Source: Mycolicibacterium litorale
Lineage (GTDB): Bacteria; Actinomycetota; Actinomycetes; Mycobacteriales; Mycobacteriaceae
Direction: 5' to 3'
NCBI RefSeq assembly: GCF_014218295.1
Contig: NZ_AP023287.1
Span: 2,790,001-2,854,000 of the forward strand
DNA: 64,000 nucleotides
Numbering within the stretch: the stretch's first letter is position 1; every line of letters begins with the position of its first letter. This document shows, one piece after another, positions 8,502-41,827 of the stretch. The translations under genes and the position numbers were made by a program. The notes beneath the pieces were generated by a model. It was not told where the DNA came from. It saw nothing but the letters and a program-made list of their open reading frames with translations, and searched no databases.

Positions 8502-9058
8502 TGTTGTTCCTCCACCCCAGATAATCGAAAGCGGGCTAACTTGTTACCACGCTTGCCGAGGAGCGTAACGCATCGTGTAACACGGTTGAAATAGATTCGC
8601 TGAAACTCAAACGCCAAGTGACGATTTGGTACGCCCGACGCGGGATCGGGACTCGGTGATTGCGTTGTGAACGTCTGCGCCATGGTCGTACACCGCCCGT
8701 GACAGCAAGCCGCAGCCTATAGGTATCACCGTTGCGCACTAACTCGCTGACGTCCCAAATATCCCTTTAGGTGCACAAATAGCCGGCATCTAGTACCCAT
8801 CGCAACCAGGATGATCGACACGAGCGAACGAACGCCACCTCGCTGATCGTTGCGTCGGCACCATTCTGTCGACCCGTTGATCTCGTGAGCGCCGATGGAC
8901 GATAGTTTCAATGGCAAGCGGTTTGCCGACCCGACGCGTCGCCGGTTCGTCGCTGAGCCGGTTTCCACCGTTCCTCGAGCGACAAGCAAATCGATTTTTC
9001 GTTTCGTTTGAGGGGCAATCTCGACCGGAAGCCCGCGCTCGGCGGGTATCTTGTGGCG
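8502..9058. other. Divergent intergenic region
   Basis: About 560 bp between two divergently transcribed genes (the PE-PPE gene on the minus strand and the flavin monooxygenase on the plus strand). It is distinctly richer in A/T than its surroundings. No frame here has convincing protein features. It should hold both promoters; I cannot assign -10/-35 boxes with confidence. Confidence 0.5.
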
Positions 9059-10537: not shown

Positions 10538-10562
10538 GCCGCCGCTTCCAGATCGGCCGCCC

Positions 10563-11396: not shown

Positions 11397-11407
11397 GGGT
11401 TTCTCCT

Positions 11408-12643: not shown

Positions 12644-12659
12644 CTTCACTGTTTCCTGA

Positions 12660-15474: not shown

Positions 15475-15486
15475 CTTCCACTCGAT

Positions 15487-25310: not shown

Positions 25311-28300
25311 GATTCAGCGGCTTCCATCGTGACCTCGGCTTCGCTGGCCGCGACGAGATCGGCCAGCAACTGCAGGTCGTCCTCGGCCAGTGCGGATTCC
25401 GGTTCGGGTATTTCCGGCGTCTGCTCGAAGCCCATGCGTTCATACAGGGCACCGGCGAGATCCGAGATCGTCGGGTAGGCCCAGACGAGCGCCGCGGGCA
25501 GCGTGATGCCGAGTCGCGATTCGAGTCTGTTCCGGAGTTCCAGTGCCATCAGCGAGTCGAGGCCCAACGACGTCATCGCCTCGCTGTGATCGATCGGATC
25601 GGTCGACCGCAGGACCGCGCAGATCTCGTCGGCGATCGTCGCCGCGACCCGAGCGGGGCGTTCGTTTTCCGGCATGTCGGCGAGCTCGGCCTGGAATCTG
25701 CCGTGACCCCGTCGCTCCACGGTGGTCGCATCCTGCAATTCACTGAACAGCGACGAATGGGCGGCCGCGGGGAACGATTGGAACCACTGCCGGGCGTCGA
25801 GCCCGAACACCCCGGTGGTGGCCCGGTCGGCGGCGAGCGCCCTCTCCATCGCCGCCATGCCCATTTCCGGCGTGATCATCGAGAAGCCGAGATTGGCGAA
25901 GGACTGGCCGCGTCCGACTTCCGCCCAAGGGCCCCAGTTGATCGCCACGGCGGGAAGTCCGCGGGACCGTCGATAGGCCACGAGGCCGTCGAGCCAGGCG
26001 TTGGCTGCCGCATACGCGCCCTGCCCGGGTGACCCGAGAAGCGATGCGGCGGAGGAGAACACCAGCCACCAGTCGAGATCGAGCTGGGCGGTGGCGGCGT
26101 GAAGCCGCCAGGCGCCCGCCACCTTCGGATGGAACACCCGCCCGACAGCCGACTCCGACATGTTGAGCACGATCTGGTCTTCGAGAACCGTCGCACTGTG
26201 CAGTACTCCGCGAAGCGGGAAGCCGGCATCCTGCACGGCGCTGACGAGACGTTCCGCGGTGCCCGGTATCGCGACGTCGCCGGTGACGACCTCGATCCGC
26301 ACGCCCCTGGCCCGCAGTTCCGCCATCGCCGCCAGGGTGTCCGCGTCGGGACCCGAACGTCCGTTCACCACAACCATTCCGGCACCCTGTTCGGCCAGTC
26401 GACGCGCGGCGACGAAACCGACGCCACCCATGCCGCCCACGACGATGTACCCACCATCGGAGGTGACCAGCGGCTGCGGCGGCGCCGGCGCGATGGCACG
26501 GATGTCACCGTCGCTCGGCACGGAGACCAGGATCTTACCGATGTGGCCACCCGACGCCATGAGCCGGAAGGCGTCGATCACGTGGTCGAAGTCGAATGCC
26601 GTCACCGGCAGTGGCTGCAGGTCACCGCGAGCGGCACGCGCCAGGATGTCCTCGAGCATCCGCCGGTGACGTCGTGGGTGCAGTCGCAGGTTGAGATCGA
26701 GGTCGACCACCGAGAAGGAGGCGCTCTTGGCGAGCCCGGCCAGTCCCAGTGACGCGTCGGCGTAGACGTCCTTCTTACCGAGCTCCACGAAACGGCCACC
26801 GGGAGCGAGTATCTGAACACCACGCGTGATCGCCTCGCCGGCGAGCGAGTTCAGGATGACGTCGACGCCGACGCCGTCGGTGACCTCGAGGACCTCGTCG
26901 GCGAAGTCGACACTGCGCGAATCGCCGACGTATTCCGCGCCCAGCGTGGACAGCAGGTGCCGTTTGGCCTCTGTTCCGGCGGTGGCGTACACCCGCGCTC
27001 CGACCATCTTGGCGACGGCGACCGCGGCCAAGCCGACACCGCCTGTCGCGGAGTGGATCAGCACTCGCTCCCCCGCCTCCAGGCGGCCGACCTCGAGCAG
27101 CGAGTACCACGCGGTCAGGTACGCCACACCGAATGTGGCTGCGTCGTTGTCGCTCAACTCATCCGGGACGGGGACGACGAGGTCTTCCACGGTCGTCACA
27201 TGGGAGCCCAGCGTCCCGGGTGCGACGGCGATGACGCGCTGGCCGACCTGTACGGAGTCGACGCCGTCGCCGACCTCGGTGATCACACCCACGCATTCGC
27301 CACCGATGACCGGTGCCTGCCCGTTGAGCCCGGGATAGAGTCCCATCGTCTTGAGGACGTCCGAGAAGTTGAGCGCCGAGACGGTGACGCGGATCTCCAC
27401 CTGACCCGCCTGAGGCGTGACCCTCTTGGCGGCGTGCACTTTGAGTCCGTCGAGCCGTCCCGCCTGGTCGAGCTGCAGACGAAAGGCATCAGGACCGCCG
27501 ATGTCGATGACGGTGTGGCGCTGCTCGGGAGCCAGCTGTCCCTTGACGGTAGTGGGTGCGGCGACCAGCCGGCGCACATAACGCTGGCCGTCGCGAAGGG
27601 CGACTTCGTCGTGCTCTCCGCCGGCCAGCAGTTCGTCCACGAGTGCCGCCGCGGATCGGCCGCCCGTCGGCTCGATGTCGACGATCGTGGCGTTCAGCTC
27701 AGGATGTTCGAAAGTCAGCACACGGACCAGTCCCCGAAGCCCCGCCTGCGCCAACGTGACCTGATCATCAGGCCGGAGCTGCTGCGCGCCGCGGGTGATC
27801 ATCCACAATCGCGGGCTGTTCCTGGCTCCGAGCCGGGAGATGGTCTTGACGGTTTCCGCCGCCTGCACGGTTCGAGACTGAGCTGTGTCGAGTTGCTGCT
27901 GGTCGGGCATCGAATCGTCGACATCTCGGCTCGGATAGAGCAGGACTATGTGGTCCCAGGACTGACCGCTGTTGATCAGCGCCGACCGTAGCTCCTCTTG
28001 ATCGGTCAGTGATATCCACTGAAATGCAGTGGCTTTGGCGGCGAGGGTGGAGGCGACCGCCCCGACCGTTTCATCACGGTCGCACGGCTCGGCCAGCAGC
28101 AACACCGCTGCGCCGGCGTCGGGCACCGGCACGTCGAGCGGCGTCGGTCGCCAATCCAGGGCGAACATCTTGTCCGACAGTTCGTCGCCGCTGCCCGGTG
28201 CCCGCAACACCATCATCTCGATGTGATCGATCTCCAGCAGCGGTCGACCGTCGGCGTCGGTCAGCACGACGTGACCAGCGAGGCGATCGGGTTTCTCGGT

Positions 28301-31300
28301 GGGCCGCAGCGATCCGATTGCGAAGGCGCCTTCGGCGACGTCGCCGAACGGCCGGATGCCGGCGAATGCGACCGGCAGTACCACGCTCCGCCCGTCGCCG
28401 TGCCCAGCGAGATCGGTGGCGGTTGTCGTGGCGCCGAGCACCTGCACGGCGATGTCCATCATCACCGGATGAAGCAGCAGAGCTCCAGAACCTCGCCTGG
28501 CGGCCGAGGGTAGCCGCACACGGGCACGGGCCTCGCCCGATTCCGACACCGACAGACCGACGATCCCCTGGAACGCCGGACCGTGCTGCTGTCCGGCGCT
28601 GCGCAGGCGCTGGTACAGATCCTCCGGATCCGGACCCGCGGAGGACGTTTCGGCCACCGGCAGTGCGGGCGGTACGGGCAGATCGACTCGTCTCACGCTG
28701 GCAACCGCGTGCGTGGTCCAGGAAGACTCCGACGACCGGGACCGGACCTCGATGCGTGCGTTCGACGCATCACCGGTGAGCGTCGTCGCCACGAGAACTC
28801 CGTCGTCGGTCACCGGCATAACCTGCTCGAGCGACAACTCAGTGATCGTCCAGCGCTCATCCGGTGCGGTGCCGAGCGCTTCGGTCGCCGCGGCGAGCGC
28901 CATCTCGGCGTATGCCGCGCCCGGCAAGACGCACACCTCGTCGATGACATGGTCGCCCAGCCACATCATGTCCGGGTTGAGCCGGTTCTCCCATACCCGC
29001 CTGCCGGTGACCGGGTCGGTGACTCCCACGCCCAGCAGCGGATGGCTGCCGTCACGGCTGGGCCCCGACGTGGGGTTGATCCAGTGCCGGGTGTGGTGCC
29101 ACGGCGTGTGGGGCAGGACGGGATGCGGCTCGGGCGGGTGCGGTGTCTGCGGTGCCGAGACGGTGTGGGTGGCGTTGAGATTGGTGTGGAAGGTGACGGT
29201 GTCGTCGCCGTCGCGCCATAGCGTCCCGATGCTGTGATGATGCTGCTCGGTGAGGGTTTCGCTGATCGCGTGCGTCAGCATGGGGTGCGCGCTGATCTCC
29301 ACGAAGGTGGTGTGGTCGGCGGCCGCCGCGCGGACCGCTTGGCTCAGTCGCACGGGCCGGCGGATGTTCGCCGCCCAGTAGTCGGCGTCGAGGGTCGGCG
29401 TGGTGTCGGCGTCCACGACCGTGGAGATGAACCGGATGCTCGGCGTGCGCGGCGTGAGATCGGTCAGAGCGCGACGCAGCTCGGGCAGAATCGGTTCCAT
29501 CAACGCGTTGTGTGAGGCGACTTCCATGTTCACCCGCTTGGCGAAACGCTGCTGCGCTGCCACCTTGTCGATGAGCGCGTCGACCTGTGCCGGCGGTCCC
29601 GCGATCACGGTCTGCCGCGGCGACGAATACACCGCGAGGCTCACCTCGGGCCAATCGGCGATCAGCGAAGCGGTGGAGTCCGGATCGAGCTCGAGCAGTG
29701 CGACGGCGCCTTGGCCGGCGAGTCGCGACATCAGTTGTGAGCGGATGGCGATCACCCGGAGTCCTTCGGCAACCGTGAGCGCGCCCGAGACCACCGCGGC
29801 GGTGATCTCACCCATGGAGTGACCGATCACCGCGTCCGGGGTGACACCGTAGGAGCGCCACAACTCTGTCAGCGCCAACTGCAGACCCATGATCACCGGC
29901 TGTACGACAGCGTCTCCGTGCACTGCTCGGCCGTCGCCGAGTGCTTCGCGCAGTGAGAACCCCACCTGCTCGACGAATGCCGGTTCCAGGTCGGCGACCG
30001 CTGCGGCGAAGGCCGGTTCGTCGGTCAGCAACTGGCGGCCCATGCCCGGCCATTGCGAACCTTGCCCGGAGTACACGAACACCGTGCCCGGCCCGCAGGG
30101 TCCCTCATGGGCGGGTACCACGCCGGCGGCGGTGTGACCGGCGGCTAGTGCCCGTAGCCCCGCGGCGGCCGCGTCGCCGTTTCGGGCACAGACGGTGGCG
30201 AATCTCTGCTGGCGTGCGCGATGGTGGTTCAGAGTGTGCGCCACATCGGTCAACCGGACACCCGCGGCGGCGTCGGATGTCATCCACTCCGCCAGCGCGG
30301 CCGCCGTGGAGGCGATGCGCTGGGTGGATTTTGCCGACACCACCAGCGTGCTGACGACCGGGTCCGCCGGCCGGTCCACATCTTCGGGCAAGGGCGCTTC
30401 TTCGATCACCACGTGTGCGTTGGTCCCGCTGACACCGAAGGACGAGACCCCGGCGCGGCGTACGCGGTTCACCGCCGGCCAATCCATGCCCTCAGAGGCG
30501 ATGGTGAACTCAGAGGCACCCGGCCCGGCGTGCGGCGTGAGCTCTTCGAAGTTCAAGTGTTTGGGGATGTAGCCGTTGCGCACACTGAGCACGGTCTTGA
30601 TGAAGCCGGCGATCCCTGCGCCGGACTCGAGGTGACCGAGATTCGTCTTCACCGATCCCAGCACGAGCGGCGCGGTATCCGTCCGATCGCCGAAAACGCC
30701 ACTCAGCGCGTCGAGTTCGATCGGATCACCCAGCGCGGTCCCGGTGCCGTGGGCCTCGATGTAGTCGATGTCGGCCGGGGTCAGGCGTGAAGAGGCCAGC
30801 GCTTGCCGCAGCAACGCCTGCTGAGCCGGGCCGTTGGGAACCGTCTGGCCGCTGCTTGCCCCGTCTTGATTGACGGCTGATCCACGCACCAGCGCAAGCA
30901 CCCGATCCCCGTCGCGCAGCGCGTCACCGAGACGCTTGAGCACCACCACACCGGCGCCTTCACTGCGCACGTATCCGTCAGCAGCGGCGTCGAACGTCTT
31001 GCATTGACCGTCCGGGGCGAGCATCCCCCACCGCGACAATGCGATGTTGGCTTCCGGTTTGAGCATCAGGTTCACCCCGGCGGCGAGGGCGGTGTCGCTC
31101 TCGCGGCGGCGCAGGCTCTGGCATGCCAGGTGCACCGACACCAGCGAGGACGAGCACGCGGTGTCCACCACCACTGCCGGACCCCGTACGCCCAGGAAGT
31201 AGGACAACCTGCCCGCCGCGAAGTTCAACGCGTTCCCGAACGGGACATACGCGTCGTACTCGTCGGCGCGGAGCTTGTCGGACAGCGTGAGCATGTAGTC

Positions 31301-31792
31301 GTATCCGGTCATGCCGACGAAGACGGAGGTCTGCGTCCCGCGCAGCGTGTGTGCCGGGATTCCGGCGTTCTCCAGTGCCTCCCAGGAGACTTCGAGCAGC
31401 AACCGCTGTTGCGGATCCATCGCCGCAGCCTCCCGCGGGGAGATCCCGAAGAATTCTGCATCGAACTCGTCGGGCTGCCATGACGTCAAGAATCCGCCGG
31501 ACACGGTGCAGATGGTGCCGGGCACGCTGGTGTCTTCACAGAAGAAGGCATCGGGATCCCAGCGATCGGCCGGGACACGGACGATGCCGCTACGACCGTC
31601 GCGCAACAGCCGCCAGTACTGGTCCGGGCTGTCGACGCCACCGGGCAATCGGCATCCCATTCCCACGACGGCGATCGGCTCCGCCTCGCCTTGCTCGGCA
31701 ATCGCCAATCGCTGGGTCAGATCGTCGATCTTGCGCAGCGCTTCGGTGATGATCGCACGGCGATCCGGCGTCGCAGCAGACATGGAACTCAA
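25307..31792 (-). CDS. ppsC: Polyketide synthase PpsC-like (KS-AT-DH-ER-KR-ACP)
   Basis: A fully reducing module of 2161 aa (PpsC of M. tuberculosis 2188). An N-terminal coiled-coil docking segment (RRAIITEALRKIDDL) precedes the KS with Cys213 (DTACSSS) and EAHGTGT/NLGHLE histidines. AT Ser is near 657 (GHSMGE), with a VASH signature. DH: His948 in GDHVIDEV, Asp near 1111. ER: AGERVLIHSATGGVGLA, near residue 1600. KR: GGMGGVGF near 1779, catalytic Tyr near 1926 (GAYAAAN). ACP: GLDSLMALE near 2078. It adds a two-carbon unit and reduces it completely to a methylene pair. The start overlaps ppsB by 4 bp. Confidence 0.95.
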   Translation of the reverse strand: MSSMSAATPDRRAIITEALRKIDDLTQRLAIAEQGEAEPIAVVGMGCRLPGGVDSPDQYWRLLRDGRSGIVRVPADRWDPDAFFCEDTSVPGTICTVSGGFLTSWQPDEFDAEFFGISPREAAAMDPQQRLLLEVSWEALENAGIPAHTLRGTQTSVFVGMTGYDYMLTLSDKLRADEYDAYVPFGNALNFAAGRLSYFLGVRGPAVVVDTACSSSLVSVHLACQSLRRRESDTALAAGVNLMLKPEANIALSRWGMLAPDGQCKTFDAAADGYVRSEGAGVVVLKRLGDALRDGDRVLALVRGSAVNQDGASSGQTVPNGPAQQALLRQALASSRLTPADIDYIEAHGTGTALGDPIELDALSGVFGDRTDTAPLVLGSVKTNLGHLESGAGIAGFIKTVLSVRNGYIPKHLNFEELTPHAGPGASEFTIASEGMDWPAVNRVRRAGVSSFGVSGTNAHVVIEEAPLPEDVDRPADPVVSTLVVSAKSTQRIASTAAALAEWMTSDAAAGVRLTDVAHTLNHHRARQQRFATVCARNGDAAAAGLRALAAGHTAAGVVPAHEGPCGPGTVFVYSGQGSQWPGMGRQLLTDEPAFAAAVADLEPAFVEQVGFSLREALGDGRAVHGDAVVQPVIMGLQLALTELWRSYGVTPDAVIGHSMGEITAAVVSGALTVAEGLRVIAIRSQLMSRLAGQGAVALLELDPDSTASLIADWPEVSLAVYSSPRQTVIAGPPAQVDALIDKVAAQQRFAKRVNMEVASHNALMEPILPELRRALTDLTPRTPSIRFISTVVDADTTPTLDADYWAANIRRPVRLSQAVRAAAADHTTFVEISAHPMLTHAISETLTEQHHHSIGTLWRDGDDTVTFHTNLNATHTVSAPQTPHPPEPHPVLPHTPWHHTRHWINPTSGPSRDGSHPLLGVGVTDPVTGRRVWENRLNPDMMWLGDHVIDEVCVLPGAAYAEMALAAATEALGTAPDERWTITELSLEQVMPVTDDGVLVATTLTGDASNARIEVRSRSSESSWTTHAVASVRRVDLPVPPALPVAETSSAGPDPEDLYQRLRSAGQQHGPAFQGIVGLSVSESGEARARVRLPSAARRGSGALLLHPVMMDIAVQVLGATTTATDLAGHGDGRSVVLPVAFAGIRPFGDVAEGAFAIGSLRPTEKPDRLAGHVVLTDADGRPLLEIDHIEMMVLRAPGSGDELSDKMFALDWRPTPLDVPVPDAGAAVLLLAEPCDRDETVGAVASTLAAKATAFQWISLTDQEELRSALINSGQSWDHIVLLYPSRDVDDSMPDQQQLDTAQSRTVQAAETVKTISRLGARNSPRLWMITRGAQQLRPDDQVTLAQAGLRGLVRVLTFEHPELNATIVDIEPTGGRSAAALVDELLAGGEHDEVALRDGQRYVRRLVAAPTTVKGQLAPEQRHTVIDIGGPDAFRLQLDQAGRLDGLKVHAAKRVTPQAGQVEIRVTVSALNFSDVLKTMGLYPGLNGQAPVIGGECVGVITEVGDGVDSVQVGQRVIAVAPGTLGSHVTTVEDLVVPVPDELSDNDAATFGVAYLTAWYSLLEVGRLEAGERVLIHSATGGVGLAAVAVAKMVGARVYATAGTEAKRHLLSTLGAEYVGDSRSVDFADEVLEVTDGVGVDVILNSLAGEAITRGVQILAPGGRFVELGKKDVYADASLGLAGLAKSASFSVVDLDLNLRLHPRRHRRMLEDILARAARGDLQPLPVTAFDFDHVIDAFRLMASGGHIGKILVSVPSDGDIRAIAPAPPQPLVTSDGGYIVVGGMGGVGFVAARRLAEQGAGMVVVNGRSGPDADTLAAMAELRARGVRIEVVTGDVAIPGTAERLVSAVQDAGFPLRGVLHSATVLEDQIVLNMSESAVGRVFHPKVAGAWRLHAATAQLDLDWWLVFSSAASLLGSPGQGAYAAANAWLDGLVAYRRSRGLPAVAINWGPWAEVGRGQSFANLGFSMITPEMGMAAMERALAADRATTGVFGLDARQWFQSFPAAAHSSLFSELQDATTVERRGHGRFQAELADMPENERPARVAATIADEICAVLRSTDPIDHSEAMTSLGLDSLMALELRNRLESRLGITLPAALVWAYPTISDLAGALYERMGFEQTPEIPEPESALAEDDLQLLADLVAASEAEVTMEAAES

Positions 31793-34700
31793 CTCACCTT
31801 CTCGGGCAGGGGTACGTCAGCGAAGTCCCGGAGCGATTCGTTTTCCCTCTCGCCGAGCTCGACGAGGTGTGAGGCGAGGGATTCGACTGTCGAGTTGTCG
31901 AAGAGGTCGGGTGACGAGACCTCCACACCGAGTGTGGCGAGGAGCGCCCGTTGCAGGACCACGCTCATCATCGAGTCCATCCCCAACTCGAAGAAGTCGT
32001 CTGCGGGATCGAGGGATTCGGGTGAGGGCAGACCCATCACCGCGGCGATCAACACGCTCACGTGGCGATGCAGCAGGACGCGTCGGCGATCCGCCGGATA
32101 CGTGCGCCACAGCTCCAGCACGTCACCGCCCGGTGCGGACGGGTCGATGTCGTCGTCGTTCCCGTGTTGCGTTCCGGTCGGTTCGATGACCACCAGGCCA
32201 CCCCACAGCCCGGTGTGGTCACGGGCGAAGGTGGCGGCGAGCCCGCTGACGGTCGTGCGGGCCGCGGAGCCGCCGTCGTGGATGTCGGGTGACGGCACCG
32301 CGAGATGAAGTCGCGGTGGCGTGGCCATGGCGGTCAACACCGACGTCAACCGTCGGATGCCGCTGAACAGCCGGTAGCCGGATTCGGCGTCGAATCCGTC
32401 CACCGGCAGTTCCGGGATGAAAAGGACATTCTCGACCGCGCACAGGGCGTCCAGAAGGATTGCGCTGGAGGCATCTTCGGCGAGCGCCGCCGTGGGTAGC
32501 ACTGCCACTTCACCGACCAGTTCGGCCGTCGCGGTGTCGGCGATCAGCAACCACGATCCGTCGGCGAGGTCCGCGGCGGTCCGCACCGTCACCTCGTCGC
32601 GGCGGTCCGCCGGTTGACCGATGCCTGCCGGTGACTTCACCGTCAGCCAGTGGTGGCCGTGGTGCCAGGGGGTGGTGGGGAGTTGGGGATGGGGTTCGGG
32701 TGGGTGTGGTGTGGTGGGTGGTTGGGTGGTGTGGGTGGTGTTGAGGTTGGTGCGGAAAGTGACGGTGTCGTCGGTGTCGCGGGTCAGTGTGCCGACGACG
32801 TGGTGGTGTTTGTCGGCGAGGGTTTCGCTGATCGCGTGGGCGAGCACCGGGTGCGGGCTGATCTCGATAAAGGTGGTGTGAGCGTCGGCGGCAGCCGAGA
32901 CCGCCTGGTGCAGCCGCACCGGCCTGCGCACGTTGGCCGCCCAGTAGTCGGCGTCCAGCGCCGGCGCCGAGGTGGTGGTGTCGACGGTGGAGAAGAACGG
33001 GATCACCGGTGTCCGAGGCGCGAGATCATTCAGGGCAGCGCGTAACTCGCCGAGGATTGGATCCATCAGCGCGGTATGGGACGCGACTTCCATGTTCACC
33101 CGCCGCGCGATTGCGCCCGCCGCTGTCGCCGCATCGATCACCGCGGCCACCGGCGCCGGCGGCCCGGCGATCACGGTCTGGTGCGGCGCGAGGTATCCGG
33201 CGACGCTGACGTCCTCGTACCCGGCGATCAACGCCCCGGTGGCGTCGGCGTCGGAGGTCACCAGCGCGACCGCCCCCTGTCCGGCCAGCCGGGACATCAG
33301 CCGAGACCGCACGGCAATGACCCGCAACCCGTCACGCACCGACAGGGCCCCGGCCACGACCGCGGCAGTGACCTCCCCCATCGAATGACCGATCACCGCA
33401 TCCGGACTCACCCCGTAAGCGCGCCACAACTCGGTCAACGCCAGCTGCAACCCCATGATCACCGGCTGCACCCGCGCATCCCCGGCCACCGCCTCACCAC
33501 CGGCGAGCACCTGACGCAACGAGAAACCCACCTGCTCGACGAACACCGGCTCCAACTCATCGACCGCCGCCGCGAACACCGGCTCGTCGACCAACAACCG
33601 GCGACCCATCCCCGCCCACTGCGAACCCTGACCCGAAAACACCAACACCGTCCCCGAACCACACGGCCCGTCATGCGGATTCACCACGCCGACCGCATGC
33701 CGACCCGCCGACAACGCCCGCAGACCCGCCACCGCCTGAGCCGGATCCCGCGCGCACACGGTCGCGAACTTGGCGTGCCTGGTCCGGTGGTGGTTGAGGG
33801 TGTGGGCGATGTCCGCCAACGGAATATCGGTTTCGGTCATCCAGTCCGCGAGCGCACCCGCGGTGGCGGCGATCCGCTCGCCGGACTTCCCCGAGACCAC
33901 CAGCGTGCTCACCGCGGGGGCGGGTTCCCCCATCACTGGCTCGACCGCAGGGGCCTGTTCGATGACGATGTGGGCGTTGGTGCCACTGACCCCGAACGAC
34001 GACACTCCGGCCCGGCGCGGCCGGTCCACGCCCGGCCACGGCAACCCGTCGGCGGCGATCCGGAACTGCGATGCACCCGGCCCGGCGTGCGGGGTGAGCT
34101 CGCGGAAGTGCAGGTGTTTGGGGATGTAGCCGTGCCGCACGCTGAGCACGGTCTTGATGAAACCGGTGATCCCCGCGCCGGATTCGAGGTGCCCGAGGTT
34201 CGTCTTCACCGACCCGAGCACCAGCGGTGCCGCATCGCCGCGGTCACCGAAGACCGCACTGAGCGCGTCGAGTTCGATCGGATCACCCAGCGCGGTACCG
34301 GTGCCGTGCGCCTCGATGTAATCGATATCGGCAGGCCCGAGCCGCGACGCGGCCAGCGCCTGCCGCAGCAGCGCCTGCTGCGCCGGACCGTTGGGTACCG
34401 TCTGCCCACTGCTCGCGCCGTCCTGGTTGACCGCCGACCCGCGCACCACCGCCAACACCCGGTCACTGTCACGGAGCGCATCGCTGAGTCGTTTGAGCAC
34501 GACCACCCCGCACCCCTCGCTGCGCACATACCCGTCGGCGCCGGCGTCGAAGGTCTTGCACCGCCCGTCCGGAGCCAACATCCCCCACCGGGAACATGCG
34601 ACGCTGTTCTCGGGGCTCAGCATGAGGTTGACGCCGGCGGCCAGTGCGGTGTCGCTCTCGCGGCGGCGCAGGCTCTGACACGCCAGATGCACCGACACCA

Positions 34701-35349
34701 ACGACGACGAACACGCCGTGTCCACCACCACCGCCGGACCCCGCACCCCCAGGAAGTACGACAACCGCCCGGCCGCGAAGTTCGCGGCATTGCCGAACGG
34801 CACGTAGGGGTCGATCTCCTCGTGGCGCAGCTTGTTCGCGAACAGCAGTGAGTAGTCGTTGGTGGTGAGGCCGATGTAGACCGAGGTCTGAGTGCCGCGC
34901 AGGGTGGTCGCGGGAATTCCGGCGTGCTCCAACGCTTCCCAGGTGACCTCCATGAGCAGGCGCTGCTGGGGGTCCATGGCGGCGGCTTCGCGCGGAGAGA
35001 TCCCGAAGAACTCGGCGTCGAACTCATCGGGCTCCCACCCGGTCAGAAACCCGCCCTCGCGGGTGCATATCTTGCCGGGTTCGGCGTTGTCGGCGCTGTA
35101 GAACTCGTCGGCGTCCCACCGTTGCGACGGCACCCGCACGATCCCGGAGCGGCCGTCTTGCAGCAGATTCCAGAACCCGTCTGGGTCGGTGACTCCGCCG
35201 GGCAACCGGCAGCCGAGACCCACCACGGCGATCGGTTCGGTCTCCCCCTGCTCGGCGACCGCCAGCCGCGCCGACAGATCGTCGATCTTGCGCAACGCCT
35301 CGGTGATGATCGCACGGCGATCCGACGACACAGCAGCCATGGAACTCAA
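31789..35349 (-). CDS. ppsB: Polyketide synthase PpsB-like lacking catalytic KR (KS-AT-ACP)
   Basis: A module of 1186 aa; PpsB of M. tuberculosis is 1538 aa. Docking coiled coil 11-33, KS with Cys213, His348, His387, AT with Ser656 (GHSMGE) and VASH at 755-758, then a Thr/Pro/His linker (about 870-900). The ketoreductase structural half is present (GSWLLIAD at 931 to about 1055) and aligns with PpsA up to the ...HPEIWG-type helix, but the whole NADPH-binding catalytic half is missing; a short Asp-rich stretch leads straight to the ACP (GMDSMMSV, Ser1126). The frame is intact, so this is a clean in-frame loss. The expected product is a beta-ketone instead of the second hydroxyl of phthiocerol. 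Confidence 0.93.
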   Translation of the reverse strand: MSSMAAVSSDRRAIITEALRKIDDLSARLAVAEQGETEPIAVVGLGCRLPGGVTDPDGFWNLLQDGRSGIVRVPSQRWDADEFYSADNAEPGKICTREGGFLTGWEPDEFDAEFFGISPREAAAMDPQQRLLMEVTWEALEHAGIPATTLRGTQTSVYIGLTTNDYSLLFANKLRHEEIDPYVPFGNAANFAAGRLSYFLGVRGPAVVVDTACSSSLVSVHLACQSLRRRESDTALAAGVNLMLSPENSVACSRWGMLAPDGRCKTFDAGADGYVRSEGCGVVVLKRLSDALRDSDRVLAVVRGSAVNQDGASSGQTVPNGPAQQALLRQALAASRLGPADIDYIEAHGTGTALGDPIELDALSAVFGDRGDAAPLVLGSVKTNLGHLESGAGITGFIKTVLSVRHGYIPKHLHFRELTPHAGPGASQFRIAADGLPWPGVDRPRRAGVSSFGVSGTNAHIVIEQAPAVEPVMGEPAPAVSTLVVSGKSGERIAATAGALADWMTETDIPLADIAHTLNHHRTRHAKFATVCARDPAQAVAGLRALSAGRHAVGVVNPHDGPCGSGTVLVFSGQGSQWAGMGRRLLVDEPVFAAAVDELEPVFVEQVGFSLRQVLAGGEAVAGDARVQPVIMGLQLALTELWRAYGVSPDAVIGHSMGEVTAAVVAGALSVRDGLRVIAVRSRLMSRLAGQGAVALVTSDADATGALIAGYEDVSVAGYLAPHQTVIAGPPAPVAAVIDAATAAGAIARRVNMEVASHTALMDPILGELRAALNDLAPRTPVIPFFSTVDTTTSAPALDADYWAANVRRPVRLHQAVSAAADAHTTFIEISPHPVLAHAISETLADKHHHVVGTLTRDTDDTVTFRTNLNTTHTTQPPTTPHPPEPHPQLPTTPWHHGHHWLTVKSPAGIGQPADRRDEVTVRTAADLADGSWLLIADTATAELVGEVAVLPTAALAEDASSAILLDALCAVENVLFIPELPVDGFDAESGYRLFSGIRRLTSVLTAMATPPRLHLAVPSPDIHDGGSAARTTVSGLAATFARDHTGLWGGLVVIEPTGTQHGNDDDIDPSAPGGDVLELWRTYPADRRRVLLHRHVSVLIAAVMGLPSPESLDPADDFFELGMDSMMSVVLQRALLATLGVEVSSPDLFDNSTVESLASHLVELGERENESLRDFADVPLPEKVS
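32668..32735 (+). repeat. G-run cluster inside ppsB (G-quadruplex candidate)
   Basis: On the plus strand (the template strand of ppsB) there are at least eight runs of three to five G separated by one to eleven bases, surrounded by GT-only repeats. The coding strand reads as the Thr/Pro/His-rich linker behind the AT domain. The pattern meets the usual G3+N1-7 four-run definition several times over. Confidence 0.6.
33264..33678 (-). repeat. ppsB copy of a near-identical AT-domain repeat
   Basis: Matches 37818-38231 in ppsA at a fixed offset of 4553-4554 bp. From 33350 to 33678 (329 bp) the two copies are identical base for base as read; the upstream ~85 bp have only three differences. The repeat encodes the AT core including GQGSQWAGMG and GHSMGE. 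Confidence 0.9.
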
Positions 35350-38300
35350 CTCAGCCTCTCCGAGAGTTGTTGCAGGAGTTCGTCATCGCTGAACTCGTCG
35401 TAATCGTCGGTGTCGTCGGCCTCGGCGACCTCGATCAGTTCGGGCAGGACGGTGGCCAGGTATTCGGTGAGCCCGTCGACGGTGGGATAGTCGAAGATCA
35501 CCGACGCGGGCAGCGTCTGGCCCAGGCTCTCGCCGAGCGCACGTTTGAGGGTCACGCTCATCAGCGAATCCATGCCGCACTGGAAGAACCCGGCGGACGG
35601 GTCCACCAGTTGGGCATTCGCCAACCCCATCGACGAGGCGACCAACGCCCGCACGTGGGCGCTGAGCATGCGCTCTCGCTCGTCGGCGGGGCAGACGCGG
35701 AGATTACGCCGGAACTCGGTCTCCCGCACCGCGACGGACGTGTCGGCACTGTCCTCGTCCACGCTCTCGACCGGGAGCAACTCGTCGACGATCCGCAGTG
35801 CCGCACGGGTGCGGTACGCCGCGGCGAGGCGCGGCCAGTCGGCGGCGACCACGGTCGAGCGTGCGGGCGCACCCGGGGCGGTGGCGGTCCACAGCGCCTG
35901 GATCGCGACCTCGTCGGGCATAGGCTCGAGACCCGACTCCAGCGTGACCTGGCGTTCGTGTTCGGAGTGGTTGTCCGCCAGAGACTTCCACAGGCCCCAG
36001 TTGACGGCGGTCGCCGGCAGGCCGGCTGCCCGTCGCGCGTAGGCGAAGGTGTCGAGGAACGTGGTGGTGGCGGTGTAGTGCGCCAGCCACCGCGATCCGA
36101 GCAAGCCCGAGACCGACGAGAACAGCACGAACTGTTGGACGTCGGTGGCCAGTGACAGGTCGTGCAGCACCGACACCGCATCGAGTTTCGGTGCGAACAT
36201 CGCGGTGACGTCCTCGTCGGTCATCTCGGCGAGCGTGACCGGGCCACCGCCGAACGCGGCGAGGTAGATGCCGGCCAGTGGGGGCAGGTCGGCACCGAAC
36301 CGGTCGAACACCGCTGCCATCGCCGTCTCGTCCGCGGCGTCGGCGGCCACGGTCACCAGGGTGGTGCCGCGCGCTGCGAGCGTGTCGGCCAGCGCCTGCA
36401 GGCGGTTGCCCGGATTGCGCGACACGGCGACGACGGTTTTCGCGCCCATGTCCGCCAACTGTTGGATGAGGTAGGGGCCGATGTTGCCCGTCGCCCCGAC
36501 GACCAGGTGGCTGCCGTTGGGGTCCACCCCGTCTCCGGATGCCTGCGGCGGTACGGCGCGGCGCAATCGCGCCACCCGGCGCACCCCGGCGCGATAGACC
36601 ACCTGGTCCTCGCCGTCGTCGCTCGCCGCCTCCGCGAGCACACAGCGGGTCGCCAGTCGACCGGGTACCAGTTCGTCCAGGTCGATTGCCGCACCCCAGA
36701 TCTCGGGATGTTCGAGCGCCAGGGTGCGCCCCAGTCCCCACAGCACCGCGTGGCCCGGATTCGCCCGGTCACCCTCGCTCACCGGTTGAGCGTTGCGGGT
36801 CAGCAGGAACAACCGGCCGGGTTCGGGCGTACGCGCCATCGCCACGGCGATGCGGCGGGCGGTCGCGAACAACCGGTGGCCAGACGCCGCGTCGAAGACC
36901 GCGGGGACCGCGGGCGCGAAGAGGACGTGGTCTGCGGTGGCCAATGCCGCCTCGAGCCCGATGTCGTCGGTAGTGTCGTCGAGGACGCCGACTGCCGCTT
37001 CGTCACCCAGTTCCCGCCGGAGCCCGCCGGCCAGTTGCGCGTCGCCGACGACGAGCCAGGAGCCGGTCGCGGGTCGTGCGTCGGTGATGGGCCGGGGCGG
37101 CCACGCCAGTTCGCAGTTCCACTCGGCCGGCACGACGCCCGCGGCCGTCGCGGAGTCGCCGTGCGACGTCGAGATCCGTCGCGGCGCCGAGAGATCCATC
37201 CAGTGCCGGGTGTGCTGCCACGGTGTCGCGGGGAGCACCGGATGTGGTTCGTGCGGATGCGGCGTGAGCGGCGGATGTGTGGTGTGGGTGGCGTTGAGGT
37301 TGGTGTGGAAGGTGACGGTGTCGTCGGTGTCGCGCGACAGCGTGCCGAGGGCGTGGTGGTGCACCTCGCCGAGCGTCTCGGTCACCGCGTTGGTCAGCAT
37401 CGGGTGCGCGCTGATCTCCACGAAGGTGGTGTGGTTTTCGGCGGCGGTGAGGAAGGCCTGGCTCAGCCGCACGGGCCTGCGCACGTTGGCCACCCAGTAG
37501 TCGGCGTCCAGCAGCGGCGCCGTGGTGCTGTCATCGACCGTCGAGATGAACGGGATCGCCGTGGTGTTCGGCGTGAGGTCGGCCAGTTCGGCACGCAACT
37601 CGGCGAGGATCGGGTCCATCAGCGCGGTGTGGGAGGCGACTTCCATGTTGACCCTGCGGGCGAACCTGTTCTGCGCCTGTGCGGCCGCGATCACCGCCTC
37701 GACCCGCTCGGGTGGGCCGGCCACGACCGTCTGACCCGGGGACACGTACCCCGCGATCTCGACACCGGGATGGTCGGCGATGGAGCTCTCGGCGGCGTCG
37801 GCGCCCAGGGTGAGCAGTGCGACCGCCCCCTGTCCGGCCAGCCGGGACATCAGCCGGGACCGCACGGCGATGACCCGCAACCCGTCACGCACCGACAGGG
37901 CTCCGGCCACGACCGCGGCAGTGACCTCCCCCATCGAATGACCGATCACCGCATCCGGACTCACCCCGTAAGCGCGCCACAACTCGGTCAACGCCAGCTG
38001 CAACCCCATGATCACCGGCTGCACCCGCGCATCCCCGGCCACCGCCTCACCACCGGCGAGCACCTGACGCAACGAGAAACCCACCTGCTCGACGAACACC
38101 GGCTCCAACTCATCGACCGCCGCCGCGAACACCGGCTCGTCGACCAACAACCGGCGACCCATCCCCGCCCACTGCGAACCCTGACCCGAAAACACCAACA
38201 CCGTCCCCGAACCACACGGCCCGTCATGCGGCAGGACCACTCCCGTGGCCGCGTGGCCGGCGGCCAACGCCTGCAGGCCCGCCACCGCGTCGAGACCGTC

Positions 38301-40088
38301 GCGCGCGCACACCGTGGCGAAGGCGGGATGATGGGCGCGGTGGTGGTTGAGGGTGTGCGCGACCTCGGCCAAGCCGACGCCCGCACCCGGGCCGACCATC
38401 CACTCGGCCAGCGCGGCCGCGGTGACCCCGATCCGCTCGGTCGACTTGCCCGAGATCACCAGAGTGTTCACCGCCGCGGCGGGTGTCGGTTCGACGGCGA
38501 CGACATCGGGAGCCTGCTCGAGGATGACGTGGGCGTTGGTGCCGCCGAAGCCGAACGACGAGACGCCGGCCCGCCTGGCCCGCGTCACCGTCGGCCACTC
38601 CTGTTCGCGGTCGACGACTTTCAGGCGCAACTGGTCGAACGGGATGTGCGGATTGGGTGACTGGTAGCCGACGTTGCCGGGAATCCGGCCCCGCTGCAAC
38701 GCCATCACGGTCTTGATGAACCCGGCTACGCCCGCCGCGGCTTCGAGATGGCCGAGGTTCGATTTCACCGCACCGATGAGCAGCGGCGAGCCCGCGGGCC
38801 GGCCGCGGCCCATGACCGAGCCGAGTGCCCTCGCCTCGATGGGGTCGCCCAGGAAGGTGCCGGTGCCGTGCGCCTCCACATAGTCGAGATCCTGGGGCTC
38901 GATGCCGGCGTGTGCGCACGCCGTCCGCAGCACCGCCATCTGCGCCGCCGGGTTGGGCGCCATCAGGCCGTTGGACCGACCGTCCTGGTTGATCGCCGAA
39001 CCGCGTACCACGGCCAGGATCCGGTCACCGTCGCGCAGGGCGTCCGGGAGTCGTTTGAGGATCACCACACCGCACCCCTCGCCGCGGACGAATCCGTCGG
39101 TAGCGGCGTCGAAGGCGTGGCACATGCCGGTGGGCGAGAGCGCGCCGGCCTGGTCGAAGCCGTGGAAGACCGCGGGTGACAGCAGCAGGTTCACGCCGGC
39201 GGCGATCGCGAGGTTGGAGTCCCCCGACCGCAGACTCTGGCACGCCAGGTGGACGGCGACCAGCGACGAGGAGCACGCGGTGTCGACAGTGATCGACGGT
39301 CCGCGCAGATCCAGGAAGTAGGACAGCCGGTTGGCGATGATGCTCAGCGCCCCGCCGGTGTTGCTCCACGCGTCGACGCGCGGCAGGTCCGTGGACGCCA
39401 GATAGCCGTACTCGCTGAAACAGGCACCCGCGAAGACACCGGTCTGCGAACGACGGAGCGACGCCGCGGGGATTCCGGCGTGTTCGAGTGCCTCCCAGGC
39501 GACTTCGAGCAGCAGCCGCTGCTGTGGATCCATCTTGACGGCCTCGCGGGGCGAGATGTCGAAGAAGTCGGCGTCGAAACCTTCGACGTCCTCCAGGAAC
39601 GACCCCCACCGGGTGGTCCGCGACAGTGCGGACGCCGTTTCCGGGGACCCGTCGTCGAACGGCTGCCACCGTTCGGCGGGCACCTCACCCACGGCGCAGC
39701 GGCCGTCGGCGAGGAACTGCCAAAAGGCGTCGGCATCGGAGATCCCGCCGGGCATCCGACATCCCAGCCCGATGACCGCGATCGGTTCCGTACCCGAGAC
39801 GTCCGACGCCGGGACGACGGCTTCGGCCTCCGTCTCCGACACGGGCGTGCTCAGGAATCCAAGGAGACCGTTGATCGTCGGGTGCTGCCAGAAGTCGACC
39901 GGCGAGACGGTCCTGCCGAGCAGTTCGGCGAGTTCACCGGACAACACGACGGCGTCTTTGGATCCGACGCCCAGATCCGCCATCGAGGCGTCGAAGTCGA
40001 TGCTCTCGGGTGAGCAGCCGATGTGGGTGATCAGGTAGTCGACCAGCCAGCTGCGCAGCCCGGCCGCGTCGAGCACGGGCGATCTCAT
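35346..40088 (-). CDS. ppsA: Polyketide synthase PpsA-like (ACP-KS-AT-KR-ACP)
   Basis: The first module, 1580 aa (PpsA of M. tuberculosis 1876). N-terminal ACP with Ser43 (LGVGSKDAV) receives the starter fatty acid from the FadD26-type AMP ligase. KS: Cys272, His407, His447. AT: Ser718, VASH at 817-820. The KR structural half begins near 1009 and the catalytic half has VVGATGNIG at 1197-1204; Ser in LFSS and Tyr near 1338 (AHYTA) are present, the LDD motif is absent and the usual Asn four residues after Tyr is Thr. C-terminal ACP has Ser1508. The expected product is a beta-hydroxyacyl chain. Both ends show 4-bp ATGA overlaps with fadD26 and ppsB. Confidence 0.94.
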   Translation of the reverse strand: MRSPVLDAAGLRSWLVDYLITHIGCSPESIDFDASMADLGVGSKDAVVLSGELAELLGRTVSPVDFWQHPTINGLLGFLSTPVSETEAEAVVPASDVSGTEPIAVIGLGCRMPGGISDADAFWQFLADGRCAVGEVPAERWQPFDDGSPETASALSRTTRWGSFLEDVEGFDADFFDISPREAVKMDPQQRLLLEVAWEALEHAGIPAASLRRSQTGVFAGACFSEYGYLASTDLPRVDAWSNTGGALSIIANRLSYFLDLRGPSITVDTACSSSLVAVHLACQSLRSGDSNLAIAAGVNLLLSPAVFHGFDQAGALSPTGMCHAFDAATDGFVRGEGCGVVILKRLPDALRDGDRILAVVRGSAINQDGRSNGLMAPNPAAQMAVLRTACAHAGIEPQDLDYVEAHGTGTFLGDPIEARALGSVMGRGRPAGSPLLIGAVKSNLGHLEAAAGVAGFIKTVMALQRGRIPGNVGYQSPNPHIPFDQLRLKVVDREQEWPTVTRARRAGVSSFGFGGTNAHVILEQAPDVVAVEPTPAAAVNTLVISGKSTERIGVTAAALAEWMVGPGAGVGLAEVAHTLNHHRAHHPAFATVCARDGLDAVAGLQALAAGHAATGVVLPHDGPCGSGTVLVFSGQGSQWAGMGRRLLVDEPVFAAAVDELEPVFVEQVGFSLRQVLAGGEAVAGDARVQPVIMGLQLALTELWRAYGVSPDAVIGHSMGEVTAAVVAGALSVRDGLRVIAVRSRLMSRLAGQGAVALLTLGADAAESSIADHPGVEIAGYVSPGQTVVAGPPERVEAVIAAAQAQNRFARRVNMEVASHTALMDPILAELRAELADLTPNTTAIPFISTVDDSTTAPLLDADYWVANVRRPVRLSQAFLTAAENHTTFVEISAHPMLTNAVTETLGEVHHHALGTLSRDTDDTVTFHTNLNATHTTHPPLTPHPHEPHPVLPATPWQHTRHWMDLSAPRRISTSHGDSATAAGVVPAEWNCELAWPPRPITDARPATGSWLVVGDAQLAGGLRRELGDEAAVGVLDDTTDDIGLEAALATADHVLFAPAVPAVFDAASGHRLFATARRIAVAMARTPEPGRLFLLTRNAQPVSEGDRANPGHAVLWGLGRTLALEHPEIWGAAIDLDELVPGRLATRCVLAEAASDDGEDQVVYRAGVRRVARLRRAVPPQASGDGVDPNGSHLVVGATGNIGPYLIQQLADMGAKTVVAVSRNPGNRLQALADTLAARGTTLVTVAADAADETAMAAVFDRFGADLPPLAGIYLAAFGGGPVTLAEMTDEDVTAMFAPKLDAVSVLHDLSLATDVQQFVLFSSVSGLLGSRWLAHYTATTTFLDTFAYARRAAGLPATAVNWGLWKSLADNHSEHERQVTLESGLEPMPDEVAIQALWTATAPGAPARSTVVAADWPRLAAAYRTRAALRIVDELLPVESVDEDSADTSVAVRETEFRRNLRVCPADERERMLSAHVRALVASSMGLANAQLVDPSAGFFQCGMDSLMSVTLKRALGESLGQTLPASVIFDYPTVDGLTEYLATVLPELIEVAEADDTDDYDEFSDDELLQQLSERLS
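37818..38231 (-). repeat. ppsA copy of a near-identical AT-domain repeat
   Basis: Partner of the ppsB copy at 33264-33678; bases 37903-38231 are identical to 33350-33678. The flanks diverge sharply at both edges, which points to gene conversion rather than tandem duplication. Confidence 0.9.
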
Positions 40089-41827
40089 GCCGGCTGGTCC
40101 AAACGCTCGAACTCGTTGCGCCCGTACCGCTCGACACAGGTGGAACGCCGGATCTTCCCGCTGGTGGTGATCGGGATGGCGCCCGGTGCCACGAACACGA
40201 TGTCGGCGACCCGCAGGCGGTGAGTGGTCGAGATCGCCGCGGTGAGTTGGCGTTTCAGGTTGCGCAGCCGTTCACGGTGCTCGTCGTCGGACCCTCGCTT
40301 CTTGACTTCGACGATCGTGACGAGGTGTTCGGTCTCGCCGCTCGGCACCGAGATCGCGGCCACCCGACCGCCGGACATCTCCTGGATGGTGGCCTCGATG
40401 TCGTCCGGATAGTGGTTCGAGCCGTCGACGATCAACAGATCCTTGATGCGCCCGATGATGAACAGTTCGCCGTCGGAGATGACACCGAGGTCACCGGTGC
40501 GCAGCCACGGCCCAGCGGGCGTCCCCGCGGACGGCTTGACCAGCCGTCCGGCGAACGCCCGCTCGGTCTCCTTCGGACGCTGCCAGTAGCCCTTGGCCAC
40601 ATTGGCACCGTGGACCCAGATCTCACCGACCTTGCCGGCCGGGTTCTCGCTGCCGGTCTCCGGATCGACGATCCGCATCATGGTCGACCGGACCGTGCCG
40701 TGGCCGAGCAGGTCGGTGCCGCCGACGGCTTCGCTCTCGCACGGCATGGCATGTCCGCTGGATAGTTTCTCGTAGTCGAACCGGACGACGTGTGGTGCAC
40801 GTCCGCGGTCGCTGGTCGCGACGTAGACCGTCGCCTCGGCAAGGCCGTACGAGGGTTTGATGGATTCGGGCCGGAGGCTGAAACGGCTGAATCGCTCGAC
40901 GAACCGATCGACGGTCGCCGCGTGCACCCGCTCACTCCCGCTGCAGATGCCAAGAACACCACTGAGGTCCAGCCCTGCCATGTCATCGTCCGTGGTGCGG
41001 CGCACGGCCAGCTCGAACGCGAAATTCGGTGCGGCGGTGAAGGATCCGGGGTTGATCGCGAGCTGCTGAATCCAACGGGCCGGACGCTGCAGGAACGCCA
41101 TCGGGCTCATCAGCACCGCGGAGCGCCCACTCACCAGCGGTGCGCACACCCCCTTGATCAGACCCATGTCGTGGTAGAAGGGCAGCCACGACACGAAGGT
41201 CATGCCGGGAGGAGTGAGGCCCGAGCAGTCGAAGTAGTCGGTGAACGCCTGGTCGATGTTGACCACGACGTTGTCGTGGGTGACGACGACGCCGGCGGGC
41301 ACCCGCGTCGATCCGGAGGTGTACTGGAGGTACGCGATCTTGGACTGTTTGGGCTGTCGGGCACCGGGCTGGGCGGGAGCATCGAGATCGAGGGAATCGA
41401 CCTCAACCACTGTGGCGGCTCGCCCGCCTCCGGACAGTGCGTAGCGGGCAACCTCGGTGGCGACCGCCGACGTGGTGAGGATGATCGACGGTGCACAGTC
41501 GCGAAGCACGCTCGAGATGCGCTCGTCGTGAACACCGTACTGCGGCACCGAAAGTGGAGCGGCGATGAGACCTGCCTGCAGCGCCCCGAAGAAGGCGACG
41601 ATGTAGTCCAGTCCCTGCGGCGCGAGGATCGCAGCCCGGTCGCCGGCGGCGCCGAACAACGTCAACTCCTCGGCGAGCACCTGGGCCCGGTTGTGCAGCT
41701 GCGCCCAGGTGAGCGACTCGGCGTAGCCGTTCGGGTCGACGTCGTAGTCGATGAACGTGTACGCCGCATCGGTGGGCTGCCGCAGTGCGCGCTCGTGCAG
41801 CAGTGCCGTCAGAGAAGTTTCACTCAT
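40085..41827 (-). CDS. fadD26: Long-chain fatty acid AMP ligase FadD26
   Basis: A 580-aa fatty-acyl-AMP ligase (FadD26 of M. tuberculosis is 583 aa). It activates a long fatty acid as the acyl-adenylate and loads it on the N-terminal ACP of PpsA instead of making a CoA ester. Adenylation motifs: YTSGSTRVPAGV near residue 168, PSYGLAEATVYVA, WLRTGDLGV, and the FAAL-type GRIKDLLIVDG near 458 followed by NHYPDDIEA. The C-terminal lysine region is TTSGKIRRS. It is the first gene of the ~31-kb operon and overlaps ppsA by 4 bp (40085-40088). Confidence 0.95.
   Translation of the reverse strand: MSETSLTALLHERALRQPTDAAYTFIDYDVDPNGYAESLTWAQLHNRAQVLAEELTLFGAAGDRAAILAPQGLDYIVAFFGALQAGLIAAPLSVPQYGVHDERISSVLRDCAPSIILTTSAVATEVARYALSGGGRAATVVEVDSLDLDAPAQPGARQPKQSKIAYLQYTSGSTRVPAGVVVTHDNVVVNIDQAFTDYFDCSGLTPPGMTFVSWLPFYHDMGLIKGVCAPLVSGRSAVLMSPMAFLQRPARWIQQLAINPGSFTAAPNFAFELAVRRTTDDDMAGLDLSGVLGICSGSERVHAATVDRFVERFSRFSLRPESIKPSYGLAEATVYVATSDRGRAPHVVRFDYEKLSSGHAMPCESEAVGGTDLLGHGTVRSTMMRIVDPETGSENPAGKVGEIWVHGANVAKGYWQRPKETERAFAGRLVKPSAGTPAGPWLRTGDLGVISDGELFIIGRIKDLLIVDGSNHYPDDIEATIQEMSGGRVAAISVPSGETEHLVTIVEVKKRGSDDEHRERLRNLKRQLTAAISTTHRLRVADIVFVAPGAIPITTSGKIRRSTCVERYGRNEFERLDQPA

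What the first reader, a model, noticed from the sequence alone, without database searches (positions are those of the whole stretch)
31789..35349. PpsB has lost its catalytic ketoreductase, so the PDIM-type line is reprogrammed
Alignment by eye with PpsA shows PpsB keeps the KR structural half but jumps from the helix before the NADPH domain to the ACP; about 300-350 residues are gone and the frame is intact. In classical PDIM synthesis PpsA and PpsB make the two hydroxyls of the 1,3-diol, so this line should leave a beta-ketone at the second position. That would be a new lipid backbone.
Basis: partly seen in the sequence, partly recalled or inferred. Interest (0 to 1): 0.85.

Follow-up and report, generated by a model that had tools for sequence, protein, structure and literature searches.

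The report
Ketoreductase-less module in mycobacterial lipid synthase
In a group of mycobacteria, several of them environmental, the second step of a waxy-lipid assembly line lacks the domain that turns a ketone into an alcohol, so these bacteria may make a wax with a changed backbone unless a separate helper enzyme does that step.

Summary
The 1186-aa protein at 31789-35349(-) is KS-AT-ACP with no KR in Pfam. The structural half of a KR is kept, the catalytic half is missing, the frame is open, and 319-339 residues are absent against PpsA and M. leprae PpsB. An assembly error is very unlikely: seven of 396 genus genomes show the same tail and architecture and a metagenome contig is an eighth, all with the same deletion edges. 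dN/dS on the stub is below 1.

(1) 'PpsB' is a positional name: the KS belongs to the PpsC-type clade. (2) PapA5 picks out a family of 15 genomes; at E<=1e-60 an SDR gene is found in exactly these 15 of 396, a candidate trans-acting reductase. (3) A Baeyer-Villiger-type flavoprotein lies about 1 kb from PapA5 in 15 of 15, but relatives also lie near PapA5 in at least 13 genomes outside the family.

A fixed non-reducing module is well supported (7 of 15 members; unseen in 8). Whether the ketone reaches the final lipid is open: about 50% retained or oxidised further, 35% reduced in trans.

The parts
31789..35349 (-). Second PKS module (positional 'PpsB'), KS-AT-(KR structural stub)-ACP, 1186 aa, no catalytic KR
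34105..35238 (-). KS domain of that module; PpsC-type KS by phylogeny
32719..33645 (-). AT domain (GHSMGE, MEVASH); shares an exact 329-bp stretch with ppsA
32185..32592 (-). Retained KR structural subdomain (stub); the catalytic subdomain that should follow is absent
31864..32052 (-). ACP with phosphopantetheine serine (GMDSMM)
35346..40088 (-). First module, ACP-KS-AT-KR-ACP ('PpsA'); its KR is of the GATGNIGP type found in classical PpsB, K-S-Y-T
40085..41827 (-). Fatty-acid--AMP ligase (FadD26-like)
25307..31792 (-). Third module KS-AT-DH-ER-KR-ACP (PpsC-like)
19911..25310 (-). Fourth module KS-AT-DH-KR-ACP (PpsD-like)
15487..19914 (-). Terminal module KS-AT-ACP-Condensation (PpsE-like)
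12660..15474 (-). DrrA, DrrB, DrrC-like ABC exporter (three genes)
11408..12649 (-). PapA5-like acyltransferase
10563..11918 (-). LCM-family methyltransferase (the real start probably lies inside this ORF; homologues are about 280-300 aa)
9008..10537 (+). Baeyer-Villiger-type flavin monooxygenase (fingerprint FTGKMVHSTRWD)
2361..3350 (-). Classical SDR with TGxGxGIG and YxxxK (the real start probably lies inside this ORF); marker of this cluster family; candidate trans-acting reductase
43235..44176 (+). Type II thioesterase (TesA-like)

Best explanation
The protein is most likely a working but non-reducing elongation module that has become fixed in one family of PDIM-like gene clusters of mycobacteria. 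It takes the 3-hydroxyacyl chain made by PpsA, adds one extender unit, and holds the product on its ACP as a beta-ketoacyl thioester because the catalytic half of its KR is gone; the kept structural half probably still spaces or braces AT and ACP. Shown here: the architecture, its recurrence in eight assemblies, dN/dS below 1 on the stub, the intact KS/AT/ACP motifs, and the family-specific SDR and adjacent BVMO-type gene. Inferred: that the module is expressed and active, and the fate of the ketone. I put about 50% on the ketone passing down the line (giving an oxo-lipid, possibly oxidised later by the BVMO), about 35% on the cluster's SDR or another free-standing reductase restoring a hydroxyl in trans (as Rv2509 does after the Pks13 condensation in mycolic acid synthesis), and the rest on something else, such as a neighbouring module's KR.
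For: No KR in the Pfam scan while three sister modules score 158-200 bits. AT-ACP gap 209-239 in 8 KR-less modules against 520-822 in 34 KR-bearing ones, nothing between. Same deletion edges and conserved ACP in 8 of 8 KR-less proteins, down to 38% identity to the window's tail. Found in 7 of 396 genus genomes, of which G000, G169 and G208 are single-contig genomes. dN/dS 0.12-0.48 on the stub, 0.05-0.12 on KS, 0-0.33 on ACP in 5 pairs. Gene order conserved in 7 of 7 compared loci. KS/AT/ACP motifs intact in the window and in the four other KR-less modules printed.
Against: No expression or lipid data. In 8 of the 15 family genomes the KR-less tail was not found: in seven of them the contig ends before that module, and in G261 the contig runs from a KR-ACP fragment into unrelated sequence, so the KR-less state is shown in 7 of 15. 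The SDR's presence in all 15 fits trans reduction as well as retention. The KS of modules 2 and 3 are identical in M. aquaticum and nearly so in G208 and G103, which would fit both accepting the same (hydroxy) intermediate. The stub evolves faster than KS, and dS reaches 0.7-1.1 in some pairs, so the ratios are rough.
Confidence: 0.7

Rival explanations
1. Trans-acting reduction: the family-specific SDR (2361-3350) or another free-standing reductase reduces the beta-ketone while it is on the ACP or after release, so the final lipid carries the usual second hydroxyl and only the wiring is new.
For: SDR matched at E<=1e-60 in 15 of 396 genomes, the same 15 as the PapA5 family; the other 381, 139 of them with a PapA5 match at E<=1e-60, have none. 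A deeper look gave 15 of 15 members and 0 of 16 chosen non-members. Not found in G223 and G346, KR-bearing lines that share the methyltransferase and DUF2505 genes. Intact TGxGxGIG and YxxxK. Precedents in print: Rv2509 reduces the beta-keto product of Pks13 (PMC7065075 passages; PMC2568869 abstract), and a trans-acting enoyl reductase is marked in the DIM+PGL locus (PMC3594219 figure legend). Interchangeable KS of modules 2 and 3.
Against: All members form one family by PapA5, so co-occurrence may count as one event, and other cluster genes co-occur too. The acidic residue after the second strand (VDIDE) is, by a recalled SDR rule, typical of NAD(H) rather than NADPH enzymes. The SDR may instead act on the terminal PpsE-derived ketone. 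It lies about 28 kb from the module. One search scored only five candidates per genome.
Confidence: 0.35
2. Backbone oxygen insertion: the ketone left by the KR-less module is the substrate of the adjacent Baeyer-Villiger-type monooxygenase, so the line makes a lipid with an ester inside its chain, or a chain shortened after hydrolysis.
For: BVMO fingerprint in 7 of 7 aligned proteins (the other 8 members were not checked for it), nearest solved relatives cyclohexanone, steroid and phenylacetone monooxygenases, gene about 1 kb from PapA5 in 15 of 15 members. In trans-AT PKS lines such enzymes accept beta-keto thioesters (PMC8262917 passage citing Meoded 2018).
Against: By the coordinates (both lists cut off), at least 13 genomes outside the family also have a relative 4-16 kb from PapA5 (G019, G053, G060, G086, G175, G195, G213, G223, G292, G323, G326, G361, G401); in G223 the second module has a KR. 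So it may serve the terminal ketone or something else. The enzyme family is widespread (372 of 396 genomes at E<=1e-120).
Confidence: 0.12
3. Assembly or sequencing artefact: the KR was collapsed in the assembly.
For: KS-AT blocks are repeated (one exact 329-bp match between ppsA and ppsB), and several draft assemblies break here. No reads were available to map.
Against: The exact repeat lies in the AT, not on both sides of the missing segment. The same edges recur in eight assemblies with diverged sequence, G000, G169 and G208 among them as single-contig genomes.
Confidence: 0.01
4. The module is decaying and idle, with the chain passing from PpsA directly to the next module.
For: The stub drifts faster than KS (dN/dS up to 0.48).
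Against: KS, AT and ACP motifs intact; dN/dS below 1 in all pairs; architecture kept between proteins that are 63% identical.
Confidence: 0.05

Closest known systems
Classical PpsB of PDIM synthesis (M. leprae L095, M. gastri L083)
   Same: Second place in an ACP-loaded PpsA, PpsB, PpsC, PpsD line; related stub and ACP
   Different: Has a GATGNIGP-type KR and a KS of another clade
PpsC of the same line
   Same: KS-AT 72% identical; KS in the same clade
   Different: Carries DH, ER and KR; this protein has none of them
Pks13 plus Rv2509 in mycolic acid synthesis
   Same: A mycobacterial PKS whose beta-keto product is reduced by a separate SDR (PMC7065075 passages; PMC2568869 abstract)
   Different: Works after the last condensation, not inside a modular line; Rv2509 has a GxxQNIG motif, the SDR here TGxGxGIG
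BVMO-containing trans-AT PKS modules (sesbanimide type)
   Same: A flavin monooxygenase beside PKS genes, acting on a beta-keto group (PMC8262917 passage)
   Different: There the monooxygenase gene lies between the parts of a split module of a trans-AT line; here it is a separate gene beyond PapA5 in a line whose modules carry their own AT

Membership tests
Classical PpsB | KS-AT-KR-ACP architecture | tested here: not met
   No KR; M. leprae PpsB has KR at 143 bits
Classical PpsB | KS groups with PpsB KS | tested here: not met
   KS in the PpsC-type clade of 28 rows, 100/100
Classical PpsB | Position between PpsA and PpsC in the operon | tested here: met
Non-reducing (KR-less) modular PKS module | KS, AT and ACP catalytic motifs present | tested here: met
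Non-reducing (KR-less) modular PKS module | No NADPH-binding or catalytic KR subdomain | tested here: met
Non-reducing (KR-less) modular PKS module | Product leaves the module as a beta-ketone | not testable with these tools
   needs enzymology or lipid analysis
PDIM locus of M. tuberculosis type | fadD26, ppsA-E, drrABC, papA5 and tesA-like genes together | tested here: met
   Family matches; the PapA5 score lies below the NCBIfam equivalog cut-offs
PDIM locus of M. tuberculosis type | mas and mmpL7 in the locus | tested here: not met
   Within the window: the long ORFs are the five PKSs, GcvP, one with a weak patatin match and antisense ORFs; no MmpL or sixth PKS among those scanned. A 2146-aa PKS frame with a KR lies elsewhere, at about 3.18 Mb
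Type I Baeyer-Villiger monooxygenase (gene 9008-10537) | FxGxxxHxxxW fingerprint and two Rossmann motifs | tested here: met
   7 of 7 aligned
Trans-acting ketoreductase (gene 2361-3350) | Classical SDR motifs | tested here: met
Trans-acting ketoreductase (gene 2361-3350) | Reduces this module's ACP-bound product | not testable with these tools
   needs assay

The most novel reading that the evidence does not exclude
A family of mycobacteria makes oxo- or ester-containing waxes by a programmed sequence: PpsA makes a hydroxyl, a fixed KR-less module leaves a ketone next to it, and the cluster's own Baeyer-Villiger-type monooxygenase and SDR act on that ketone, so that an oxygen is inserted into, or the chain is cut at, the backbone of a PDIM-like lipid.
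Probability: 0.13. Interest if true: 0.8.

Novelty: new variant of a known kind. Interest (0 to 1): 0.5.

Why it matters
PDIM-type waxes are known mostly from pathogens as 1,3-diol esters (general knowledge). A conserved KR-less module in relatives shows that the diol-forming part of the line is evolvable, predicts an oxo-lipid or a line rewired with an outside reductase, and gives two candidate genes (SDR and BVMO) through which the question can be tested directly by gene removal and lipid analysis.

Tried and rejected
Assembly collapse: set aside on recurrence in eight assemblies. Dead KR in PpsA as well: its KR lacks the usual Asn (K-S-Y-T), but PpsB KRs of M. leprae and M. gastri read K-S-Y-S, so this is normal for the type. 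Free-standing KR nearby: of 127 KR-family matches listed in the own genome (150 of 183 candidates scored) three lie in the window, those of PpsA, PpsC and PpsD; the SDR of 2361-3350 is not in that list and was found by Pfam's adh_short model. BVMO as proof of action on this ketone: not accepted, since relatives lie near PapA5 in at least 13 genomes outside the family. Extender unit from AT motifs: KR-less modules carry MEVASH in four genomes and VDVASH in four, so the extender is not settled. Structure model of the tail: mean pLDDT 54.5; Foldseek hits include PKS KRs but none at E<=0.001, so it is not used as evidence. Trans-acting enoyl reductase family (PF03435): seven hits in the genome, none in the window. 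Literature: the listings showed me no paper on a KR-less PpsB or on this cluster family; this covers only that open-access library and the rows listed.
Full report
Observation. The ORF 31789-35349(-) is 1186 aa. Pfam finds KS, AT and ACP and no KR, whereas PpsA, PpsC and PpsD of the same cluster carry KR domains at 158-200 bits. Alignment with PpsA runs through the KR structural region and then jumps to the ACP. In the 42 modules with no scored DH, ER or condensation domain, the AT-ACP gap is 209-239 residues in the 8 KR-less ones, 520-561 in 26 KR-bearing modules and 794-822 in 8 longer KR-bearing ones; the three of those eight that I scanned have a dehydratase-like match (M. leprae PpsA, M. 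vanbaalenii, G223). Over the stub, a profile of the eight tails matches solved PKS ketoreductases only within their first 176-226 chain residues (E 8.7e-5 for 3qp9, 4.3e-4 for 2fr0), the structural subdomain by recall; most other hits lie in the ACP part.

Is it real? The C-terminal 267 aa were searched in 396 genus genomes. 147 had some match at E<=1e-12, but only seven matched along almost the whole tail at E below 1e-50, all with frames of 1197-1296 aa: the window's genome, G169, G270, G111, G208, G369 and G103. Their KS-AT-ACP architecture was confirmed. A metagenome contig (L043) adds an eighth. All eight share the same edges. G000, G169 and G208 are single-contig genomes. Nei-Gojobori dN/dS in five pairs is 0.12-0.48 on the stub, 0.05-0.12 on KS, 0.09-0.31 on AT and 0-0.33 on ACP; dS reaches about 1.1, so the ratios are rough, but the stub looks constrained, less than KS.

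What module is it? A maximum-likelihood KS tree of 75 rows puts the KS of the KR-less module in the PpsC-type clade (28 rows, 100/100), apart from the PpsB KS of M. leprae, M. gastri, M. angelicum and UBA41. Among KR-bearing modules its stub and ACP are closest to those of the PpsA/PpsB kind. The protein is thus best described as a module with a PpsC-type KS and a PpsA/PpsB-type tail from which the catalytic KR is missing. KS of modules 2 and 3 are identical in M. aquaticum and nearly so in G208 and G103, and ppsA and ppsB of the window share an exact 329-bp AT stretch: gene conversion is the likely cause, and the AT tree differs from the KS tree.

The cluster. The order tesA, fadD26, ppsA, KR-less module, further PKS, ppsE, drrABC, papA5, LCM methyltransferase, flavin monooxygenase, PE-PPE protein (40-83% identical), DUF2505, S15 hydrolase, SDR is kept in 7 of 7 compared loci, with the monooxygenase on the other strand in G208 and a second PE-PPE gene in G369 and G103. 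The window and IS-1496 have PpsC and PpsD; the other five have one KS-AT-KR-ACP module in their place. PapA5 sets apart 15 genomes at 61-62% identity or more; the next listed match is at 56%, and 139 further genomes have a match at E<=1e-60 (the match list is cut off). In 8 of the 15 the KR-less tail was not found: in G179, G052, G229, G125, G291, G160 and G058 the contigs end before that module, and in G261 the contig runs from a KR-ACP fragment into sequence without PKS similarity, a misjoin or a truncated line. The state of module 2 is unknown there.

Helpers. The SDR of 2361-3350 was matched at E<=1e-60 in 15 of 396 genus genomes, exactly the 15 of the PapA5 family (five candidates were scored per genome). 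In a deeper search of 24 chosen genomes it was found in the 8 members and in 0 of 16 others, and in 15 of 15 members. It has TGxGxGIG and YxxxK in the 7 sequences aligned. In G052, G058, G125, G160, G179 and G229 it lies about 8-11 kb from PapA5 on the same contig; in G261 and G291 it is on another contig. The flavin monooxygenase has the Baeyer-Villiger fingerprint in the 7 sequences aligned, its closest solved relatives are Baeyer-Villiger enzymes, and its gene lies about 1 kb from PapA5 in 15 of 15 members. Against a special link to the KR-less module: the enzyme family is common (372 of 396 genomes at E<=1e-120), and by the coordinates at least 13 genomes outside the family also have a relative 4-16 kb from PapA5, among them G223, whose second module has a KR.

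Mechanism. Shown: an elongation module with intact motifs and without a catalytic KR, conserved. Inferred: a beta-ketoacyl-ACP product. Two main fates remain. In the five-module lines (window, IS-1496) retention would leave only the PpsA hydroxyl of the usual pair; in the four-module lines it would place a ketone between two hydroxyl-making modules. Trans reduction has precedents: Rv2509 reduces the beta-keto product of Pks13 (PMC7065075, passages; PMC2568869, abstract), and the DIM+PGL locus is drawn with a trans-acting enoyl reductase (PMC3594219, figure legend). Oxygen insertion has a precedent in trans-AT lines (PMC8262917, passage). The SDR's acidic residue after the second strand suggests NAD(H) use (recalled rule), which speaks mildly against a biosynthetic KR role.

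Comparison with what is known. [quoted passage not shown] here a PapA5 match at E<=1e-60 occurs in 154 of 396 genus genomes and PDIM-like lines occur in species that I know as environmental, such as M. vanbaalenii and M. aquaticum. The listings showed no paper that describes this KR-less line.

Verdict. Real, conserved and chemically meaningful; the strongest form of the claim (a new lipid backbone) remains a testable prediction with a serious rival.

Noticed in passing
window 9008-10537 (+): Baeyer-Villiger-type flavin monooxygenase near PapA5 and the methyltransferase; about 1 kb from PapA5 in all 15 family genomes, and 4-16 kb from PapA5 in at least 13 genomes outside it.
   Followed up: partly
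window 2361-3350 (-): SDR whose presence at E<=1e-60 matches the PapA5-defined cluster family exactly (15 of 396 genomes).
   Followed up: partly
window ppsA 1858-2186 and ppsB 1672-2000 (gene coordinates): Exact 329-bp identity in the AT region, probably recent gene conversion; in M. aquaticum the KS of modules 2 and 3 are identical.
   Followed up: partly
G169, G270, G208, G369, G103 (contexts): These lines have one KS-AT-KR-ACP module in place of PpsC and PpsD, so the family probably makes at least two chain lengths.
   Followed up: partly
G208 context, 42-55 kb: A second PDIM-like cluster starts shortly after the SDR.
   Followed up: no
G261 contig C5, about 124.3 kb: A KR-ACP fragment of a PKS module stands beside unrelated sequence, either a misjoin or a truncated line.
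   Followed up: partly
L098 (M. vanbaalenii) module at 10382-15862: A module with KR placed before a dehydratase-like fragment (KR 1157-1331, DH-like 1418-1500, ACP 1710), the reverse of the usual order.
   Followed up: no
window 6831-8501 (-): PE-PPE domain protein in the cluster; by recall, proteins of this fold act as acyltransferases in other mycobacterial lipid pathways.
   Followed up: no
window 53827-58454 (-): LysR regulator, TRAP transporter genes (DctM, DctP) and an arylmalonate-decarboxylase-family gene together.
   Followed up: no
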